IMG/VR virus record: IMGVR_UViG_3300026518_000015 | Coordinates: 1-48,256 of that record | Length of the DNA stretch: 48,256 nucleotides | Reading direction: 5' to 3' (one strand) | Origin: a virus | Part shown: positions 3,856-48,061 of the stretch, in pieces | Layout of the letters: every line of letters begins with the position of its first letter | Position numbering within the stretch: the stretch's first letter is position 1 | Made by a program: the position numbers and the translations under genes | Notes under the pieces: generated by a model | Databases searched by the model: none | What the model was told of the DNA's origin: nothing | Seen by the model: only the letters and a program-made list of their open reading frames with translations

Positions 3856-5328
3856 TTAAATAACTTCAGTTTGTGATGCAAGATAAACTAATATTAATTT
3901 ATATATAGCGTATGCTGTATAAATACCACTATCTTCATCTTCATTAAGCATGTTATATGCCTCAGTAATGAAATCAGAGAATAATTTAAAGTTAGTATTA
4001 CCATATAGAACATTAGCAAATAAATCAACTGTAGTTTCATCAATTTCTACTAACTCACCAAGTGGTCTTATATTTAAGAATTCCTCTATCTCAGTTTGTT
4101 TAGAACTTAAAACATCGATACTAACAACATTATCTAAAGCAAATAAATAGTAGTTTCTTAATCTTAAACTAGTATTATTTTTATTAGCTAAAATCATAGC
4201 AGCATTAGCACTATCTCTTAATTTACTATATGTATCTCCATTCATTACTAAATCATCATTTCTAATTAAAGCTGGTATGAATGTGTCACGTACGCTACTA
4301 TTATAAGCGTCTAAGTTAAAGATACTTCCTATAATATTTTTAATGCTACCTGTATTCTCATTAATATATTTATTAAATGTATCTTCTAAACAATAAATAG
4401 TTAACTCAGCATCAGTCGTTCTGTTAAAACCATAAACAACAGTATCAGTTTTTAAATAAACATCATATTGTCCTTTAAGAACTCTTAGTTTACTTATAAC
4501 AGCATTCAACATACCTTTAGCAGTTGCGTCATCACCATTTTCATTAAGATAATCTTTTAAAATAATAACTAACCCTACTAACGCATTAATGTCTTTAACA
4601 AATACAAATGAAAGACTATTTAAGAAACTTTCAAAAGTGGGTTTATTTAAAAGTTCATCTATTTTATCTATAACATATACACTATTAGTTAATTTACTAA
4701 ATTCATCTTTAGCTAACAGACCTATTTCTAAATCACTTTTAATAGAACCTAAGTCAGTATTTATACTAGGTAGCGGTGAGCTATCGCTAACATTATCTAC
4801 CATTTGCTCGGCGAACCAATCTTTCTCTTCTAATAAATTATAAAAAGAAATCAACTGCGTTAATGAAATTGTTACATTGTTCTCTATAGTTTTATCTTCT
4901 TTAGAGCTTTTCATAAAGTTGTTTACTTTAAATTTATAACGCTTCATTTTGTCTAATACTTCTTCTGTATAAAATTCATACTCATTTTCAACTTTAGTAT
5001 ATAACTTATTGATTACATCAATATTTACTGGAGGTAAACCGAATTTAGCATCACTAGTATAGTTAGCTATATCTATTAAACGTAACCAGCTATTAACAGT
5101 CGGTCTTATTCTACCCTGTATAGTTTTACCTGCTGATGTATTTATTAAACCAGTTACTTGTTTAGTGTAATAGTCATTAAGTATAGCTTCACCAAGAACT
5201 TTATGTTTAGTATTTAACCCTTTAATGTCTACATTATCATTATTGGCACTTACTCTATTAGTTACATAGTATGCTATGTCTAATAAAAGAGATGTGATTT
5301 TTGTATTTTCTTCACGTAGAATCGCCAT
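3856..5328 (-). CDS. Large unknown virion-type protein
   Basis: About 490 residues, Asn-, Asp- and Leu-rich, with long amphipathic helical stretches and no catalytic motif that I can see. The in-frame ATG at 5337 abuts the AAGG ribosome site with no spacing. The ATG at 5328 (protein start MAILREEN) has normal spacing and also puts the upstream TTGAA motif at 27 nt, as for other genes, so I prefer it. Size, late-type promoter and position next to the protease suggest a structural protein, for example an internal or portal-associated one, but no family is recognised. It forms its own unit: a terminator lies behind it and another in front at 5397. Confidence 0.7.
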   Translation of the reverse strand: MAILREENTKITSLLLDIAYYVTNRVSANNDNVDIKGLNTKHKVLGEAILNDYYTKQVTGLINTSAGKTIQGRIRPTVNSWLRLIDIANYTSDAKFGLPPVNIDVINKLYTKVENEYEFYTEEVLDKMKRYKFKVNNFMKSSKEDKTIENNVTISLTQLISFYNLLEEKDWFAEQMVDNVSDSSPLPSINTDLGSIKSDLEIGLLAKDEFSKLTNSVYVIDKIDELLNKPTFESFLNSLSFVFVKDINALVGLVIILKDYLNENGDDATAKGMLNAVISKLRVLKGQYDVYLKTDTVVYGFNRTTDAELTIYCLEDTFNKYINENTGSIKNIIGSIFNLDAYNSSVRDTFIPALIRNDDLVMNGDTYSKLRDSANAAMILANKNNTSLRLRNYYLFALDNVVSIDVLSSKQTEIEEFLNIRPLGELVEIDETTVDLFANVLYGNTNFKLFSDFITEAYNMLNEDEDSGIYTAYAIYKLILVYLASQTEVI

Positions 5329-6275: not shown

Positions 6276-9200
6276 TTAATTATCATATAACTCTAGAGCT
6301 TGTTTAGTTACCTCTTGTAATAATGTAGCAGTAGTTCCCATTAAAACAGGAGAGCTAACTATCCTAGCACTAATCCCTATATAAGAGAATAAAGCATCTA
6401 CTTCATCATTACTCTCGGTTAACATAGGCTCGTCTACAACAGTTGTTATAGTAGTCTTAAGCATATTCGCTATAATACCTTTATCACCAGTAACCATACC
6501 TTTCTCTTCATTTATAAAGAATTTGATATGTATCTTACCTTCATCAAGCGGTTTACTATTCACACTATAGCTACTATTAACTCTACCACTAAACTTTTTA
6601 TTAGTTATACTATCTACCATAAATGGCTCTGTTATATCTACTAACCTCTGTAGCGATTTACTAAGTTCATCATATTCACAATTGTAAAATGCTTGTATCT
6701 TAATAATTCTACCATTATACTTAGCTTTAGGAGTAGATTTTATAAAACTCTCCATTAACGCTAAGGTTTCTTTATTTAATTTTTCATCACCTATCATATC
6801 TGTAGATATAGTGAATAAAGCATCGTTGTTAGTAACTTCATCGTTTATATTAACTACATTCATTACGTTATCTGTTTTATCTAATGTAACTTCTCTTATT
6901 TTAACGAAATTTATTTTAGTATCAGTAGCTATTCTTTTACTTATAGCCATAGCATCTTCATTAGTTTCAGAAGACTCTATCATAGCAACGTTAATAATCT
7001 TACCTGGTCTATAAAGTACTTTAGTATTGTCAAACATATCTATATCGAAGAAACTACTATCGTAATAGATAATATCACCTTTTTTAATAGGTTTATTCTC
7101 TATAAGATTACTTTTCATAATATGCACGTATGCCGTACCTGATTCTTCTTTAGATGTCCAATCATTAAACTTATAAGCTTTTTTACCTATAGTTTTATAA
7201 GTTATAGTTGCATTATGTTTACCTACTTTAGTTACTTTACCATCTTCTTCAGCTATACCTACAAATTTAGGACCAGCTCTATATGGTATAATAGACTCAT
7301 AACCTGTTCTAACAGGGAAAACCCTAGCATCAGCTATAGGTACGATATGACTATTCATGATGTTAGTATATAAAACACGCTTAGGGTCATCCCTTGTTGA
7401 GAATGGCGATATCATAGCAGAAGTACTTAATATATTAACCCACTCTAACTCCTTAACATCTTTCTTATCGCCTCTTACAGTTTTAAGTACCGGGTTAGCT
7501 GACATATAAGCAGTTATACCTACATCACTACTATCTTTACTACTTTCACTTATGATACCTATATCATCTTTATGAAACTCTCTAGTAGCTTTAGACATAC
7601 TCTCTTTTTGTCTACCATTACCTGCTCCTAGATATGTTGTATCTTCTTTTTGTTTTAAGAATAAAATAGGATTTAAATCATCTATTAATATACTAGCACT
7701 ATCTTCATTAACGGTACTCCAAACCTCATATGGATTAACGACTACTTTACCTCTACCGAAATGCTCTTCACTCATCTTTTTCTCTATAGCTTTAGCCATA
7801 GTTCTATAAAGTGCTTCTGGTATAACTTCATATCCTTTAAATAAAAATCCTTTAGCGCTAGTAGGATGAAGATATTCATCTGTTATTAGTAACTCATTAG
7901 CTCTTATTAATAGAGGTATGAATGTAGTTGGTTCATTTATCTCTTTTAAGACATTAGCTGTTATAGGGTCTAAGAATAGAGTTTCTATAGCAGTTATCTT
8001 ATTAACAACCACTAGTTTATAATCCATAGTTTTAAATAATGTAGGAAATAATGTTTTATTATCTAATAAACTATATGGTACTGTTCTAAGTGATTTTAAA
8101 TCATATGTTAATCCATATATAACCATCTTTTGTAAACTAGTAGTTGGTTTTAATACTAACGTACTATCTGAAAATTTAATAACTAATGTATCATTATCAC
8201 TAACTCGTTTATTACCTTCTAATAGTTCATATTCTATTTTAAGTAATTTTAATAACTCTGTTATACCTAAGTAATAACTTAATAATAAAGCCATAGGTAT
8301 GTAATCTTTATAAATTTTAATTAAGCTATATTCTGTTTTAAGATTATTAGCATCGATTCCTATAAACTCATAAAAGTTTCCTAATGGTTTAAGTTTATCT
8401 TCATAAAGGAAAACATTATTATCATTATCCATTAATAAAGGAACTTTTTTATTATTAAACCCTATAAATATTTTTCCATTTTTCTCTATCTTATTTAAAT
8501 CATATTTCTTATCTAAAATTTCATGCCTATGCATATAATTAAATGTTAATGTATAACCTTTTATTTTAAAAGATTTAGTATATCTAGCTATTTCCATATA
8601 AGTTTGTGGTAATTTTAAATCAGGGGCATTTAATGTACCAGATATTAAGTTACTAACTACACCCTCTTCTACTAATTTTATTAACTCTTTCTTAAAACTA
8701 AAACCTCTATCCATTTTCTTATAAGGTGCCTTATCTATAAATAGTTTACCATAAGCCGAACTTAAAGATACTCTATTATAGTTAATCTTCTTGATAGGCG
8801 CATCATATTTCTTTTTACGCATAAGATATGCATTACCAGACATAGAGTAAACGCCATCTTCATTTACTTTAGGTATCTTCTGTTTTATAGTATATGGAGC
8901 CTTGCCTTTATCAGATATAGTTATACTATAATCTTCATACTCTCCTAATATATCAGCATGTGTAGTTACTTCTATATCTTTAATAACTATACCAGATTTT
9001 TGTATACCCATTATTACAGAAGCCATATCTTTCTTATACGTATCTTTCATATATTTTTTATTTATAGCAGTTATAGTATCATTAGCATCCTCTTCGTTAA
9101 ATACTGTTACTGGTTTATATATTTTACGTAAATCATTAGGTACATCTATGTCTTCATGTTTTATATTTATTAAATCTTTTATCTTATCCTTACCGCCGAA

Positions 9201-10451
9201 TGGTGATGGTTTATTAAGTATAGCATTAACATCACTAACCATTTTATCATACTTCTTCTTATCTATCTGTTTATTTATATATAGCTCTTCGATATTAGCT
9301 ATGGTCTCTTCTTCTAAAGTAGCTTTACCTGTTATTAAATCTTTCTTAGTACTATATTTATTAACATAAGTATCAGTGACCCTTATGTCAGTTTCAGGTA
9401 TGTCTATATCTTCTATAGTATCTTCTATAATTTCTTCTTCTTCATCGGCTACTACATTACTACTCTCTATATCTTCTTTTAATTTACGCATTACTACAGC
9501 ATCATCTATTTCATCTACTTCATTTTCAGAATCATCATTATCTGTATTAGATTTAGTTACTATATCTTTTAAGTATATATAAAATAATTTAATCAACTCT
9601 TCTTTCTCTATCTTACTAACATCACTAGTTATATCTTCATAGCTTTTAGAAAAACTTAATAATTTATTTAAGTTTAATATAGTTACTTTATTATTATATG
9701 TTAATAATAAGTCTATATCTTTTAACATCTCTGTATTATCTAAAAGTCCTTTAAGGTTAGATTTTTCTAATGTATCATTATCTAATAATCTAAATAAGTC
9801 TAATAATAGCTTATGTTTGTTATTAAAAAATAATTGCATATATTTTAAAGTAACGTCTTCGTTAATGTATTTCTTAATAATACTTAAATCAAATATTTGG
9901 TTAGGTATCTCTATAACTAACGTTTGACTTATATTAAACTTATTTCTTTTATTATGCTTTATTCTATCATATACATTTTTTATAGTATCCACTAACGTAG
10001 TAACCGCATTAACATATTTATAATAAGGAGTATATGGATTCTCTAAGTATCTATAGTGTTTATTAATCTCACTGTAGTTTATTATTAGATTAGTATCTTT
10101 AAGTACTTTAGTATCTCTATCTAAAATTATATTATATTTATAACTTAGGATAGTAGGTACTTCTGGATATCTTTTATTTAAATCAGCTACTATGCTCTTC
10201 TCATTAATAACTAACTCTTTTACATTAAATTTAGGATTAGTATATTTTAAAATATTATATATCAATGTCTTATTAGTATCTCTTATTAAACTAGAGCTCT
10301 TTATCGGATATTCTTCATCTGGATTAAATAGATGCGTTATATTATATCTCGGTAAATCTAATAAGTTATTCTCTATGACAACTGGATTAGTAAAACCACT
10401 TTTAAATCTTAATCCAAATTTCTTATAAAACTCTTTATGTTTTAAATGCAT
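6276..10451 (-). CDS. Phage multi-subunit RNA polymerase, beta subunit (without C-terminal region)
   Basis: A 1391-residue protein related to the beta subunit of cellular RNA polymerase. Recognisable segments lie in the C-terminal 500 residues: a GRGKVVVNPYEVWSTVNEDS region followed by the ES/DSSD fork-like stretch, then SKRIATDTKINFVKI, and the catalytic-lysine region reduced to TGDKGIIANM at 1321-1330 (cellular beta has GDKMAGRHGNKGVI). A match to the following proline and DALFSYIGISARI stretch is visible, but the chain ends about 40 residues later. The region that anchors the beta' clamp in bacterial beta is missing, so it may be a separate gene. The N-terminal 550 residues are divergent, with an acidic stretch (EEEEIIEDTIEDIDIPETD). 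A TTGAA motif and AAAAGGAG precede the start. It lies behind beta' and two tiny genes. Confidence 0.88.
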   Translation of the reverse strand: MHLKHKEFYKKFGLRFKSGFTNPVVIENNLLDLPRYNITHLFNPDEEYPIKSSSLIRDTNKTLIYNILKYTNPKFNVKELVINEKSIVADLNKRYPEVPTILSYKYNIILDRDTKVLKDTNLIINYSEINKHYRYLENPYTPYYKYVNAVTTLVDTIKNVYDRIKHNKRNKFNISQTLVIEIPNQIFDLSIIKKYINEDVTLKYMQLFFNNKHKLLLDLFRLLDNDTLEKSNLKGLLDNTEMLKDIDLLLTYNNKVTILNLNKLLSFSKSYEDITSDVSKIEKEELIKLFYIYLKDIVTKSNTDNDDSENEVDEIDDAVVMRKLKEDIESSNVVADEEEEIIEDTIEDIDIPETDIRVTDTYVNKYSTKKDLITGKATLEEETIANIEELYINKQIDKKKYDKMVSDVNAILNKPSPFGGKDKIKDLINIKHEDIDVPNDLRKIYKPVTVFNEEDANDTITAINKKYMKDTYKKDMASVIMGIQKSGIVIKDIEVTTHADILGEYEDYSITISDKGKAPYTIKQKIPKVNEDGVYSMSGNAYLMRKKKYDAPIKKINYNRVSLSSAYGKLFIDKAPYKKMDRGFSFKKELIKLVEEGVVSNLISGTLNAPDLKLPQTYMEIARYTKSFKIKGYTLTFNYMHRHEILDKKYDLNKIEKNGKIFIGFNNKKVPLLMDNDNNVFLYEDKLKPLGNFYEFIGIDANNLKTEYSLIKIYKDYIPMALLLSYYLGITELLKLLKIEYELLEGNKRVSDNDTLVIKFSDSTLVLKPTTSLQKMVIYGLTYDLKSLRTVPYSLLDNKTLFPTLFKTMDYKLVVVNKITAIETLFLDPITANVLKEINEPTTFIPLLIRANELLITDEYLHPTSAKGFLFKGYEVIPEALYRTMAKAIEKKMSEEHFGRGKVVVNPYEVWSTVNEDSASILIDDLNPILFLKQKEDTTYLGAGNGRQKESMSKATREFHKDDIGIISESSKDSSDVGITAYMSANPVLKTVRGDKKDVKELEWVNILSTSAMISPFSTRDDPKRVLYTNIMNSHIVPIADARVFPVRTGYESIIPYRAGPKFVGIAEEDGKVTKVGKHNATITYKTIGKKAYKFNDWTSKEESGTAYVHIMKSNLIENKPIKKGDIIYYDSSFFDIDMFDNTKVLYRPGKIINVAMIESSETNEDAMAISKRIATDTKINFVKIREVTLDKTDNVMNVVNINDEVTNNDALFTISTDMIGDEKLNKETLALMESFIKSTPKAKYNGRIIKIQAFYNCEYDELSKSLQRLVDITEPFMVDSITNKKFSGRVNSSYSVNSKPLDEGKIHIKFFINEEKGMVTGDKGIIANMLKTTITTVVDEPMLTESNDEVDALFSYIGISARIVSSPVLMGTTATLLQEVTKQALELYDN

Positions 10452-10645: not shown

Positions 10646-10743
10646 CAGCTCTTTCTTCTAAAACAATGTATAACTAAAGATATGCCAGTTATTGCTAATA
10701 AAATAGAAAGTAAACTAATGCCAGTTACTGTATTACAAATCAT
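10645..10743 (-). CDS. Tiny single-span membrane protein downstream of beta'
   Basis: A 32-residue peptide: MICNTV, then a 20-residue hydrophobic span (TGISLLSILLAITGISLVIH), then a basic end (CFRRKS). This predicts a single membrane helix with the C-terminus inside by the positive-inside rule. Its ATG overlaps the TGA of beta' (ATGA), and its own TGA overlaps the next start, so three genes are tightly coupled. A tiny membrane peptide made at a fixed ratio to an RNA polymerase subunit is unusual. Function unknown. Confidence 0.6.
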   Translation of the reverse strand: MICNTVTGISLLSILLAITGISLVIHCFRRKS

Positions 10744-12377
10744 TTTGCTAACCCTCCCGTAAAGATATCCATTACTATAGCATTAACATTACTATGTGCG
10801 CTATATATTAATGACCCTGATGGGTCTATAAAGAAATTCCTATTATTCATTTTATCAAATAGTTCTTTTCTAGATTTATCTTCCCATACAAAGTTATAAG
10901 AAACTTTATCGCCATCGAAATCAGCGCCCATTGGTCCTAAATATATATTAGGAACCGCTAATGAACTTAACCATGATGTTCCTATTATGGGATACTCACT
11001 ACACTCTACCTCTTTACATATACCAGGTATAGTTATTTTAACACGTTTACTTTTTAAAGTAGATTTTAAATAAGATTTACTAGGGTTGATGCTACCTAAT
11101 CCAGTTATAGGATATCTAGTAACATAACCTGGATATTTTTCTACTTCGTTAAATATAGCTAAAAAGAAAAGCTCACCATATGTTATAGGTTTTATAAACT
11201 TCTTATCATATGTTTCTGGTAACTCTTCTATATCTTTAATAACTATGATTTCTTTATCATCGTCATATACTAATAATAAATAATTACCATCTATCTCTAT
11301 AGTACTATTTTTAAGGTCATCGTTATATAGTTTATTAATGATATCTTCTAAACCTTCATCAGTAACCCATTTACTTCTTGTTTTCTCACCTATACTTTTA
11401 AAACCTCTTTTAAAACTTTTCTTATCTATTAATAATGCTTTATTAGATTCTATATCAAAAACATCATGCAATAATTTAGTCCTTACGTTAAATATAGTTA
11501 TATCTAATAAACCTTTCATAGATTCGAATAACCCTATGATAGACGTTAATGCATCTGGACGCAATTTATCTTTTACATCATGTACATCAGCTGGTATAGA
11601 CGTTAAAACATTACGAGTACCATACATGATAGTACGCTTAGCCCATTTACCTTGTATATAACCACCTTTACCATCTAGTATATTCTGTAGATATTCATAT
11701 ATCTCATTAGCAACGCGCTGAACCCTGAACTGTACTTGATTAATAATATCACTATCATTAGTATCAGCATTAAATTGTTTAGCGGTTGTAGCTGTAGATA
11801 TCAATTTTCTATATAACGCATTTATCTCATTCTCTAAAGGCTTACCAGACTCAGTTATCATATAGTCCCTTAGACCAGCTGGTAATACTAAATATTTAGT
11901 TATGATAGATTCTTCTAAAGTATATTTCTTAATGAACTCTATAGAGAACTTTCTCTGTATAGAATCAGTCTCTTTAAATTTTATATCGTTATAATGTTTA
12001 AAAAAGAATTTAAAACCTGTCTTACCATCTGATTCGTTAGATAACTCGAAGTCTTTAGTTTTCTCATTGAACACTCCATACTTAGTCCCATTAAGTATAC
12101 CTTTGTATAACGTACTAAGTGAAGTCACCTCTGCATATATTCTAGGATGTAATATCTTAACACCTGTTACTATATGTCCGAAGTTAACCATGCGCTCTTG
12201 ACTACCTACTAATCCGAATATAGTTGTAGAAAATAAACCATCTTTATTAAACTCAGTAGAGTTCTGCTCAAATACATCCCTAGACTTAACTTCAGGTATA
12301 TTATTAAACATATTAGGCTTAGGTACTAATAATGCTATATTAAGTGGATTATCAGATTCATTCATATCATTTTTCAT
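10740..12377 (-). CDS. Phage multi-subunit RNA polymerase, beta' subunit N-terminal part
   Basis: A protein of about 545 residues that matches the N-terminal half of beta'. The catalytic loop, NADFDGD in cellular enzymes, is GADFDGD (Asp at 488, 490 and 492 of the longer reading), so the three Mg-binding Asp residues are kept. Upstream, GKWAKRTIMYGTRNVLTSIP corresponds to the GKRVDYSGRSVI region. The chain stops about 55 residues after the loop, so bridge helix, trigger loop and jaw must come from another gene, as in phiKZ-type split polymerases. ATG at 12383 has only 3 nt after AAGG; ATG at 12377 has better spacing and is preferred. A TTGAA motif precedes it. Its stop overlaps the next start (ATGA). 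Confidence 0.9.
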   Translation of the reverse strand: MKNDMNESDNPLNIALLVPKPNMFNNIPEVKSRDVFEQNSTEFNKDGLFSTTIFGLVGSQERMVNFGHIVTGVKILHPRIYAEVTSLSTLYKGILNGTKYGVFNEKTKDFELSNESDGKTGFKFFFKHYNDIKFKETDSIQRKFSIEFIKKYTLEESIITKYLVLPAGLRDYMITESGKPLENEINALYRKLISTATTAKQFNADTNDSDIINQVQFRVQRVANEIYEYLQNILDGKGGYIQGKWAKRTIMYGTRNVLTSIPADVHDVKDKLRPDALTSIIGLFESMKGLLDITIFNVRTKLLHDVFDIESNKALLIDKKSFKRGFKSIGEKTRSKWVTDEGLEDIINKLYNDDLKNSTIEIDGNYLLLVYDDDKEIIVIKDIEELPETYDKKFIKPITYGELFFLAIFNEVEKYPGYVTRYPITGLGSINPSKSYLKSTLKSKRVKITIPGICKEVECSEYPIIGTSWLSSLAVPNIYLGPMGADFDGDKVSYNFVWEDKSRKELFDKMNNRNFFIDPSGSLIYSAHSNVNAIVMDIFTGGLAK

Positions 12378-12385
12378 ATACATAT

Positions 12386-45436: not shown

Positions 45437-47062
45437 ATGAAAATAGAAGCTAAAAATATAATATACTTACCAGAGAGAATAGTCGGAGAAGATATACATA
45501 TAGTTAAAGAAGTACAATATGAAAATGGACTTTATAAAGATAATATAAAAATAATAAAAGATTTTAAAAGACCATTCTGGATAACTAAACCTATATATAG
45601 AAATTATACAGAAAAAAAAGAGAGTGAAGAGTTATCTAAAGTAGATAAATTCATGTCTACGGAATCTAACTTATATAAAAATATAGCTAGAAGATTAGGA
45701 GAACGATACATAGGTATGACTAATCCTAGGATATTAAAACAGTCCCCTTATTTATACGGTACTGATGTTGATTCTAGAACTATACTTAAATATATGTATA
45801 TGAGAAAATATAATAACTTCATAGCCCCTAATAGATATGGTGTATTTGATATAGAAGTAAATACATTAACTAATGAAATAATACTTATATCTATAGTAAC
45901 TGCTAAGAAATTAAAAGTAGCTATATTAAAAATTTTTGTTAAAGGTATACCTGATTTAGAAAATAAAATAAATCAACAATATGCTAAATATATACCAGAG
46001 TGTGAGTTTAAGAATACTGTAGATAGAGAATATAGAATATTCGATACACAACTAGAAGCTATACGTTGGATATTTCAATCTGCTAACTATATGGATATAG
46101 ATATATTAGCTGCTTGGAATATAAAATACGATATAGGCGAGATAGTAGATTATTTAGAGAGTCAGAATGTTAATCCTGCTGAGATATTCCATTATGATAA
46201 AATACCTAAAAAGTATATGTACTTTAATCTTAAAGAAGCTAAAAGTAAAAAGATAACTGAAGCAGGTAGAGAGATACCAGTATCTCCAGAAGAACAATGG
46301 CATGTTATAACCACTACTTCTAATTATAAACTTTTAGATGCTATGGCTACACATAGATATATTAGAGTAGGAGGAGCTACAGTTCCAGGAGGTTATGGTT
46401 TAGACAACATACTAGGACATGAAGGGGTTGCTAAAAAACTTAAATATGACAGTAATCAAGGTTTTAAAGGTATCGAGTGGCATATGAATATGGTAGCTAA
46501 TAAGCCAGTAGAATATATCATATATAATATATGGGATGTTATGTCTATGTTAGTTTTAGATAAGAAGACTAAAGATATAGAAGTATCATTAGGTTTACTT
46601 GCTGAAGTTAGTCATTTAGATATTTTTAATTCAGGACCTAGGCGTATAGTAGATGCGTTATTATTCTTTTATTTATCTAGAGGTAGAGTATTAGGTGTTA
46701 AGGACCCTACTGAAGAGAATAATAAAATATTAGGTCTAGGAGGATGGGTTCTAACATTAAGAGCACATCTTATGGAAGATAATGGTTTACGTAGAACAGA
46801 TGCGGGAGATTGGATACATACTAATATAAGAACATATGTAGCTGATGCAGATGCTGTTTCATCTTATCCATCTAATACTAGAGCGGCTAATGTATCTAAA
46901 GATACCACACATAGAGAAGTAGTTAAAATATCAGGATTGAATCGTAACGACTTTATACTACAGAATATAAATCTTATGTATGGTAGAACTAATAGTATAC
47001 AATATTGTAGGACAATGTTTAAGATGCCTGATTTTTATACATTATATAAGGAAGTTAGTTAA
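45437..47062 (+). CDS. Family B DNA polymerase, N-terminal part (exonuclease and palm motif A)
   Basis: A 541-residue protein similar to the first half of T4 gp43-type polymerases. The 3'-5' exonuclease is complete: Exo I FDIEV (D138, E140), Exo II NIKYD (N228, D232), Exo III YNIWD (Y363, D367). Palm motif A is DAVSSYPS (D472; T4 has DLTSLYPS). The chain then stops within 70 residues, before the fingers motif B and the DTDS motif C, and no continuation is found on any strand nearby. The C-terminal half must be a separate gene elsewhere. The split allows proofreading and half the active site only; both pieces must join. TTGCT replaces TTGAA upstream. A structured non-coding region follows. Confidence 0.88.
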   Translation: MKIEAKNIIYLPERIVGEDIHIVKEVQYENGLYKDNIKIIKDFKRPFWITKPIYRNYTEKKESEELSKVDKFMSTESNLYKNIARRLGERYIGMTNPRILKQSPYLYGTDVDSRTILKYMYMRKYNNFIAPNRYGVFDIEVNTLTNEIILISIVTAKKLKVAILKIFVKGIPDLENKINQQYAKYIPECEFKNTVDREYRIFDTQLEAIRWIFQSANYMDIDILAAWNIKYDIGEIVDYLESQNVNPAEIFHYDKIPKKYMYFNLKEAKSKKITEAGREIPVSPEEQWHVITTTSNYKLLDAMATHRYIRVGGATVPGGYGLDNILGHEGVAKKLKYDSNQGFKGIEWHMNMVANKPVEYIIYNIWDVMSMLVLDKKTKDIEVSLGLLAEVSHLDIFNSGPRRIVDALLFFYLSRGRVLGVKDPTEENNKILGLGGWVLTLRAHLMEDNGLRRTDAGDWIHTNIRTYVADADAVSSYPSNTRAANVSKDTTHREVVKISGLNRNDFILQNINLMYGRTNSIQYCRTMFKMPDFYTLYKEVS

Positions 47063-47200
47063 AAAAAAAACTTCCATATATTGAAGCGGTACGGACGAAT
47101 AAAAAACTTTCATAGACGATTTTCCTAAAAAACTCTTAATCCGTATCGCTCACCCAAAAACCATTAAGTGGTAAGCTGCATCCACTTATAGTTATTTTTT
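47050..47200 (+). ncRNA. Structured 3' region after the DNA polymerase N-terminal gene
   Basis: Three helices follow one another. GGAAGTT at 47050 pairs with AACTTCC at 47069 across the polymerase stop codon. AGCGGTACGGA at 47085 pairs over 44 nt with TCCGTATCGCT at 47140 (11 bp, one G-U). TAAGTGG at 47165 pairs with CCACTTA at 47182 and is followed by TTATTTTTT. The last is a terminator; the others suggest a folded RNA tail or separate RNA element. The G/C content of the long stem is unusual here. Confidence 0.45.
47165..47200 (+). terminator. Plus-strand terminator after DNA polymerase part
   Basis: A 7-bp stem (TAAGTGG) with a 10-nt loop, followed by GTTATTTTTT. It ends the transcript of the polymerase N-terminal gene. 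Confidence 0.6.
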
Positions 47201-47304
47201 CCATGTTAGTGTTCTTTGTCTGTTCTGCTAACAAAAAACATATTCGTTGTTTAATGTGTTTGCCATGTGTTCTTGTACTCTTTGTTGTACGAAATTTTCG
47301 CGCT
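47201..47304. other. T/G-rich non-coding segment
   Basis: About 100 bases between the plus-strand terminator and the next hairpin, with many T and G and few A on the plus strand (TTCTTTGTCTGTTCTGC, TGTTCTTGTACTCTTTG). It differs from all flanking sequence. No gene with a ribosome site is seen; a 55-codon plus-strand frame exists but looks fortuitous. Confidence 0.5.
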
Positions 47305-47340
47305 TATATGCATACACGTTTAAGTACGTGTATGCATATA
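47305..47340. terminator. Long bidirectional hairpin
   Basis: A 15-bp perfect stem (TATATGCATACACGT) with a TTAAGT loop. A T-rich stretch follows on the plus side; on the minus side it overlaps the end of the 30-residue gene. Confidence 0.75.
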
Positions 47341-47412
47341 CTTCTTCTTTATTTTTTTAATAACATATGAAAGCCAATATATAGCTAACCCGTATCCTAT
47401 TAAAGTACCCAT
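47320..47412 (-). CDS. Tiny membrane protein behind the HD gene
   Basis: A 30-residue peptide: MGT, then a hydrophobic span (LIGYGLAIYWLSYVI), then a basic tail (KKIKKKYMHTRT). Its ATG comes 1 nt after the stop of the HD gene, with AAGGTG inside the end of that gene as ribosome site. The layout, membrane span plus basic tail, is like the tiny gene behind RNA polymerase beta'. The hairpin at 47305 ends the unit. Function unknown. Confidence 0.55.
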   Translation of the reverse strand: MGTLIGYGLAIYWLSYVIKKIKKKYMHTRT

Positions 47413-47413
47413 T

Positions 47414-48061
47414 TTATATCACCTTACTAATATATTCATTTAACTCTATCTGAAATTGTTTAAATTCATTTTCATATATTTTTTTGTACGCTAAATCATT
47501 CTCCCAAAAATATCCCTCACTTCCAAACTTCTCTATCAGATGTGCTTTAACATTCTCTTTCATATCATCATCACCTTTATGGTATAGCGTAGCTCTATTT
47601 AAAACTTCTTTAAATATAGGTTTACCTTTATCAGCCGCCCTTAATAAATTAATATATACTAAACGCTCCTCACTATCCACTAATGTTTCATTTACAATCA
47701 TACTAGCCCTGTGGTGGTATATCATAGTTGAAATAGTATATAGGTCATATTCGTCTAATTCATCCATGAAATTTAATATAGGATAATTTAGAAAATACTT
47801 TTCCCTAACTAATAAAGCTGCTAATATATTATGCCTTTTTCTGTTTTCACCAGATTTAATATCGTGTAAATATACAGCTAAGAAAATAATATCTCTGTTA
47901 ATATTAAACTTAAACTCATTATTATTAATTAACTCGCATATATTACTCCATACTTCATCAATATGTCCTATCTTATGGGCATCATCATTTTCATCGTAGA
48001 ACTCCTCTTTTAAGAAAAGCCTTACTTGCCGCTCATGGTTAGTTAATTCATTATCGAACAT
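47414..48061 (-). CDS. HD-domain phosphohydrolase
   Basis: A 215-residue protein with the HD metal-binding pattern: an H in HKIGHIDEVW (H29 or H33), the H66-D67 doublet in AVYLHDIKSG, and further His in KRHNILAALL (H77) and IYHHRAS. Enzymes of this fold cleave phosphate esters of nucleotides, including dNTPs, cyclic dinucleotides and (p)ppGpp; the substrate cannot be told here. It is preceded by a 19-codon frame that overlaps its start and by dyad promoter copy E. It is followed by a tiny membrane gene. A nucleotide-pool or host-signal function fits. Confidence 0.78.
   Translation of the reverse strand: MFDNELTNHERQVRLFLKEEFYDENDDAHKIGHIDEVWSNICELINNNEFKFNINRDIIFLAVYLHDIKSGENRKRHNILAALLVREKYFLNYPILNFMDELDEYDLYTISTMIYHHRASMIVNETLVDSEERLVYINLLRAADKGKPIFKEVLNRATLYHKGDDDMKENVKAHLIEKFGSEGYFWENDLAYKKIYENEFKQFQIELNEYISKVI

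What the first reader, a model, noticed from the sequence alone, without database searches (positions are those of the whole stretch)
45437..47200. DNA polymerase split after palm motif A, followed by a folded RNA region
The exonuclease and motif A are complete, but motifs B and C are absent and no continuation exists in the next 1.2 kb. The end of the gene lies inside a 7-bp hairpin, followed by an 11-bp long-range stem and a terminator. A split at this point separates two halves of one active site. The structured tail could be a relic of a mobile intron, a stabilising 3' element, or a separate RNA.
Basis: partly seen in the sequence, partly recalled or inferred. Interest (0 to 1): 0.68.

Follow-up and report, generated by a model that had tools for sequence, protein, structure and literature searches.

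The report
One half of phiKZ-type split polymerase
The gene is complete: it is the exonuclease-plus-first-active-site half of the two-gene DNA polymerase that phiKZ-like giant phages share, and its partner half is missing only because this 48 kb piece of the genome ends 1.2 kb further on.

Summary
The 541-aa ORF (45437-47062) matches PHROG 3011 (phiKZ gp82 type) end to end (3e-140). It carries exonuclease motifs I-III and palm motif A (invariant D470, D472, YP) and stops where the family stops, about 65 aa after motif A. The partner, PHROG 2927 (phiKZ gp50 type), carries motif B (KIFNNSLSG) and motif C (SDTDST). It is absent from this 48,256-base fragment. In 35 related virus records it is a separate gene at least 22 kb away, on the opposite strand in 34. 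No fused enzyme turned up. The literature calls this a "split subunit DNA polymerase" (SPN3US gp18/gp44, first seen in OBP). The hairpins behind the stop are real: the 11-bp stem occurs once in the window and in 1 of 200 shuffles. They have no homologue, do not match group I introns although relatives' introns are detected, and resemble other gene junctions here. Most likely they are 3'-UTR or terminator hairpins. In passing: group I introns interrupt this gene at motif A in seven relatives.

The parts
45437..47062 (+). N-terminal subunit of the phiKZ-type split family B DNA polymerase (541 aa), complete gene
   Evidence: phrog_3011 E 3e-140 over residues 2-538; 272 phage records, 268 over at least 80% of the query; Foldseek best PDB hit RB69 gp43, E 2e-13
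45848..45856 (+). Exonuclease motif I (D138, E140)
   Evidence: invariant in 31 sequences
46118..46132 (+). Exonuclease motif II (N228 to D232)
   Evidence: invariant in 31 sequences
46523..46537 (+). Exonuclease motif III (Y363 to D367)
   Evidence: invariant in 31 sequences
46844..46870 (+). Palm motif A (D470, D472, Y477, P478)
   Evidence: invariant in 31 sequences; profile aligns it to RB69 residues 407-430, weakly; low pLDDT alone (427-496 below 50)
46982..47029 (+). Conserved C-terminal block (G516-T518-N519 ... P531) that marks the natural end of the family
   Evidence: alignments A1 and A4; ORF ends
47050..47075 (+). 7-bp hairpin over the stop codon; hairpins occupy the same position in close relatives L016, L003, L017 and L018, with unrelated sequence
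47085..47150 (+). 11-bp long-range stem (47085-47095 with 47140-47150), function unknown, found only in this phage
   Evidence: 1 in window, 1 of 200 shuffles; not present in relatives
47165..47201 (+). 7-bp hairpin with 10-nt loop followed by a T-rich run: probable transcription terminator of the polymerase gene
   Evidence: not counted by the strict scan because of the loop
47305..47340 (.). 15-bp hairpin followed by T-rich DNA: probable terminator at the convergent junction
   Evidence: strict terminator scan

Best explanation
This is an intact gene for the N-terminal subunit of the split family B replicative DNA polymerase of phiKZ-like jumbo phages. It supplies the N-terminal domain, the 3'-5' proofreading exonuclease and the first palm strand with the motif A aspartate. 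A second gene, not on this fragment, supplies motif B, motif C and the rest of the polymerase domain. By inference, the two chains assemble into one enzyme with a composite active site. The hairpins behind the stop are the 3' UTR and terminators of this gene and of the convergent neighbour.
For: Shown: full-length match to phrog_3011. 272 phage records carry the N-half and 276 the C-half, with nearly the same host distribution. In every full-length relative examined the N-half ORF ends within roughly 0-90 aa of the same point, and no C-half lies on the same locus. The C-half is a separate ORF in G001 and in 34 of 40 further virus records, at least 22 kb away, median 41 kb, opposite strand in 34 of 35. 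The C-half of the relative carries motif B (KIFNNSLSG) and motif C (SDTDST). AlphaFold folds residues 1-426 well, but the strongly conserved palm stretch, 427-496, has pLDDT below 50 alone, as expected of a fragment that folds only with a partner. The fold matches RB69/T4 gp43 (E 2e-13) and the AR9, Joad and other jumbo-phage N-halves. Literature: split subunit polymerase SPN3US gp18 + gp44, first identified in OBP (PMC5694885, PMC5105663); phiKZ 050 and 082 are both listed as DNA polymerase among top hits of a knock-down screen (PMC12571901). The window is a virus record of only 48,256 bases.
Against: The C-half of this very phage was not seen, because the record is a fragment. Assembly of the two chains was not tested here. 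A 2021 survey describes the C-half as the polymerase and the exonuclease as a separate protein, without saying in the passages read that motif A lies in the latter (PMC7824862).
Confidence: 0.96

Rival explanations
1. The gene is truncated or misassembled, and the second half lies directly downstream in the true genome.
For: The contig ends 1.2 kb further on.
Against: The ORF ends exactly at the family's natural C-terminus; all relatives stop there and have the C-half at least 22 kb away. Hairpins and a convergent gene (47414-48061, phrog_3921) follow.
Confidence: 0.02
2. The structured tail is a remnant of a mobile group I intron or of a homing insertion that split the gene.
For: Group I introns do sit in this gene in relatives: L018, L019, L045, L047, L049, L050 and Goslar, often within motif A.
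Against: In the relatives the introns lie at or before motif A, upstream of the split point, and the exon behind them ends at the same stop. The window gene is continuous across both intron sites. A lax Rfam search of the tail gives no RF00028, while Goslar's intron scores 1e-9 in the same kind of search. No homology of the tail to any relative.
Confidence: 0.02
3. The 350-nt noncoding region 47063-47413 is a separate structured RNA gene, on either strand, with a role of its own.
For: Fold z -5.7 on + and -5.5 on -. The 11-bp stem is beyond chance. The relative L003 has a strongly folded noncoding stretch at the same junction (3905-4325, minus strand z -5.8).
Against: No sequence or Rfam match, so no covariation could be tested. 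Many gaps in G001-G004 fold as strongly. The close relatives L016, L017 and L018 have only a short hairpin here. The segment 47007-47156 ranks 64th of 481 windows by z.
Confidence: 0.1
4. It is a T4-type gp43A/gp43B split made by a homing endonuclease.
For: Fold of the RB69/T4 gp43 kind.
Against: No Pfam DNA_pol_B match. No homing endonuclease gene was recognised next to it; in relatives the halves lie tens of kb apart on opposite strands. Its sequence relatives are the phiKZ-like phages.
Confidence: 0.01

Closest known systems
phiKZ gp82 (PHIKZ082) / 201phi2-1 gp144 / SPN3US gp44 family (PHROG 3011), N-subunit of the split PolB
   Same: Full-length alignment, same exonuclease and motif A residues, same C-terminal end, separate C-half gene elsewhere in the genome of relatives
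   Different: 24-34% identity to isolated phages; 61% and 55% to the nearest IMG/VR contigs
T4/RB69 gp43
   Same: Fold of N-terminal and exonuclease domains (Foldseek E 2e-13) and motif A
   Different: gp43 is one chain; here the chain ends before motifs B and C
Split gp43A/gp43B of some T4-like phages (from memory, not tested)
   Same: A family B polymerase encoded as two polypeptides
   Different: Recent, local and linked to homing endonucleases as I recall it; here the split is ancient, family-wide and dispersed
Group I introns in phage DNA polymerase genes (RF00028)
   Same: Found in the same gene of relatives, at motif A
   Different: Absent from the window

Membership tests
phiKZ-type split PolB, N-subunit (PHROG 3011) | Profile match over the whole length | tested here: met
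   E 3e-140, residues 2-538 of 541 against profile 11-562 of 576
phiKZ-type split PolB, N-subunit (PHROG 3011) | Exonuclease motifs I-III and motif A DxD..YP | tested here: met
   invariant columns D138, E140, N228, D232, Y363, D367, D470, D472, Y477, P478
phiKZ-type split PolB, N-subunit (PHROG 3011) | Chain ends after the TNA block, without motifs B and C | tested here: met
phiKZ-type split PolB, N-subunit (PHROG 3011) | Separate C-subunit gene (PHROG 2927) in the same genome | tested here: inconclusive
   absent from the 48 kb fragment; present in G001 and in 34 of 40 further relatives
phiKZ-type split PolB, N-subunit (PHROG 3011) | The two chains form one active polymerase | not testable with these tools
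   needs biochemistry or a complex model
T4-like gp43A/gp43B | Recognisable T4-type PolB (Pfam DNA_pol_B_exo or DNA_pol_B) | tested here: not met
   no Pfam family at E of 0.001 or less; no PF00136 match in the window
Group I intron | Conserved catalytic core (RF00028) | tested here: not met
   no hit at E of 10 or less in 47000-47420; positive controls in Goslar and six IMG/VR relatives
Intrinsic terminator | GC-containing hairpin followed at once by a T-run | tested here: met
   47305-47340 by the strict scan; 47165-47201 only with a longer loop allowed; termination itself untested

The most novel reading that the evidence does not exclude
The noncoding 350 nt behind the gene are an independent structured RNA of this phage lineage, with a positional counterpart in the relative L003, rather than terminator hairpins.
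Probability: 0.1. Interest if true: 0.4.

Novelty: new member of a known kind. Interest (0 to 1): 0.15.

Why it matters
It adds a divergent member, with its nearest relatives, to the phiKZ-type split polymerase. It also puts the cut between motif A and motif B in all relatives, so that neither chain alone holds a full active site. That bears on annotation: the N-half is often called a DNA polymerase or a hypothetical protein, and a survey treats it as a stand-alone exonuclease. The recurrent group I introns at motif A in relatives are a further annotation trap, as in Goslar.

Tried and rejected
Truncated or broken gene: rejected, since all relatives end at the same point. C-half elsewhere in the window: searched with PF00136, PHIKZ050 and the G001 C-half, none found. 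Intron relic: rejected with positive controls. Split intein: no residues beyond the family's C-terminus, so no room. Homologues of the tail: blastn against phages, against relatives G001-G004 and exact patterns in IMG/VR gave only chance-level matches. Rfam on the window and on L003: nothing. Exceptional folding of the tail: 47207-47356 ranks 5th and 47007-47156 64th of 481 windows, and many gaps in relatives fold as strongly. One alignment-based scan failed for lack of conserved blocks, and the first folding scan timed out. The OBP paper itself is not held, so it is cited through later papers.

Full report
Observation. The ORF at 45437-47062 reads 541 codons and stops at TAA 47060-47062. It holds exonuclease motifs I-III and a motif A of the form DADAVSSYPS, and it lacks motifs B and C. 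The rest of the window has no continuation: PF00136, phiKZ gp50 and the closest relative's C-half all fail to match.

What it is. The protein matches PHROG 3011 (DNA polymerase) from end to end with E 3e-140. A tblastn search finds it in 272 phage records, 268 of them over at least 80% of its length, among Pseudomonas, Erwinia, Salmonella, Vibrio, Serratia, Aeromonas and other jumbo phages, at up to 33% identity. In IMG/VR the nearest are 61% (L016), 55% (L003) and 44-46% (L017, L018) identical. In the nine-member and 31-member alignments the chain ends at the same place, shortly after a conserved block G.TNAIE.C...P. In every full-length relative examined the ORF stops soon after this block, with a variable tail of up to about 90 aa, and none contains C-half sequence nearby. 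The gene is therefore whole.

The other half. phiKZ gp50 belongs to PHROG 2927. In G001, the virus record of L003, its homologue is a 726-aa ORF (L014) that matches PHROG 2927 with E 1.4e-167 and carries KIFNNSLSG (motif B) and SDTDST (motif C), both kept in phiKZ gp50 as KINNNSYSG and SDTDST. The same protein is found in 276 phage records and in 34 of 40 further IMG/VR records with an N-half; the six without it are contigs of 35-132 kb. In the 35 records with both, the genes are at least 22 kb apart (median 41 kb by linear coordinates; the largest values are probably genomes opened between the two), and on opposite strands in 34. In the two nearest relatives that hold both halves the C-half lies 54 and 57 kb downstream. 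The window ends 1.2 kb after the N-half, so its absence here is expected.

How it probably works. AlphaFold models residues 1-426 well, but the strongly conserved palm stretch 427-496, with motif A, has pLDDT below 50 on its own. A conserved stretch that does not fold alone is what one expects if the palm is completed by the C-subunit. The folded part matches RB69/T4 gp43 (E 2e-13) and other jumbo-phage N-halves, including AR9. The profile places motif A on RB69 residues 407-430, though weakly. The inference is a heterodimer with a composite active site: motif A from one chain, motifs B and C from the other. That step is inferred, not shown.

What is known. The state is published as a split subunit DNA polymerase: SPN3US gp18 and gp44, initially identified in phage OBP (PMC5694885, PMC5105663). 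A phiKZ knock-down screen lists 050 and 082, both as DNA polymerase, among its top hits (PMC12571901). A 2021 survey describes the group 1 polymerase as lacking a fused exonuclease, with that protein encoded elsewhere (PMC7824862); the alignments here add that motif A goes with the exonuclease half.

The tail. The 7-bp hairpin over the stop codon is of a common sort: 33 in the window, 4-14 in shuffles. Hairpins stand in the same place with different sequence in L016, L003, L017 and L018. The 11-bp stem is real by count (1 in the window, 1 of 200 shuffles). The region as a whole folds better than shuffles on both strands. But it has no homologue and no Rfam family, and similarly strong folding is common in the long gaps of relatives and elsewhere in the window. 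The intron idea was tested with positive controls: Goslar's intron is found at 1e-9 and introns in six IMG/VR relatives at 3e-7 to 3e-22, whereas the tail yields none at E of 10 or less. The simplest reading is a 3' UTR with terminators at a convergent junction; a separate RNA is not excluded (about 10%).

In passing. In Goslar, L018, L019, L045, L047, L049 and L050 the same gene is interrupted by group I introns at two recurring places: the conserved GW near residue 437, and motif A itself. I found no report of this in the papers searched, which is not proof that there is none.

Verdict. Interest is low.

Noticed in passing
L010 3887-5663; L018 6345-7274; L019 3399-4325; L045 6419-6734; L047 6334-7172; L049 6367-6680; L050 6776-7081: Group I introns interrupt the polymerase N-half gene of seven relatives at two recurring sites, the conserved GW (window W437) and motif A (window D470/D472); three relatives carry both. 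Goslar's also encodes a NUMOD1 endonuclease.
   Followed up: partly
L010 5664-5919 (NC_048170.1, Escherichia phage Goslar): The second exon of Goslar's polymerase N-half (LDISSSYPNG ... KTNAVDFC ...) is not annotated; the record's DNA polymerase gp068 stops at the intron border.
   Followed up: partly
L003 3905-4325: Noncoding stretch downstream of the polymerase N-half in the 55% relative folds very strongly on the minus strand (-119.8 kcal/mol, z -5.8), with A-rich and U-rich ends that pair.
   Followed up: partly
L003 3892-3947: A stretch of about 50 nt is repeated at several other places in the same virus record (G001), perhaps a promoter or other regulatory element.
   Followed up: no
window 47305-47340: 15-bp hairpin TATATGCATACACGT/ACGTGTATGCATATA with T-rich flank at the convergent junction.
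   Followed up: partly
window 6276-10451 and 10740-12383: Multisubunit phage RNA polymerase beta subunits (phrog_3148, phrog_2986), which support the phiKZ-like identity of the window.
   Followed up: partly
L013 5777-8226 (Pseudomonas phage vB_PQ1): Five consecutive short ORFs all called DNA polymerase, suggesting sequencing frameshifts or a decayed gene.
   Followed up: no
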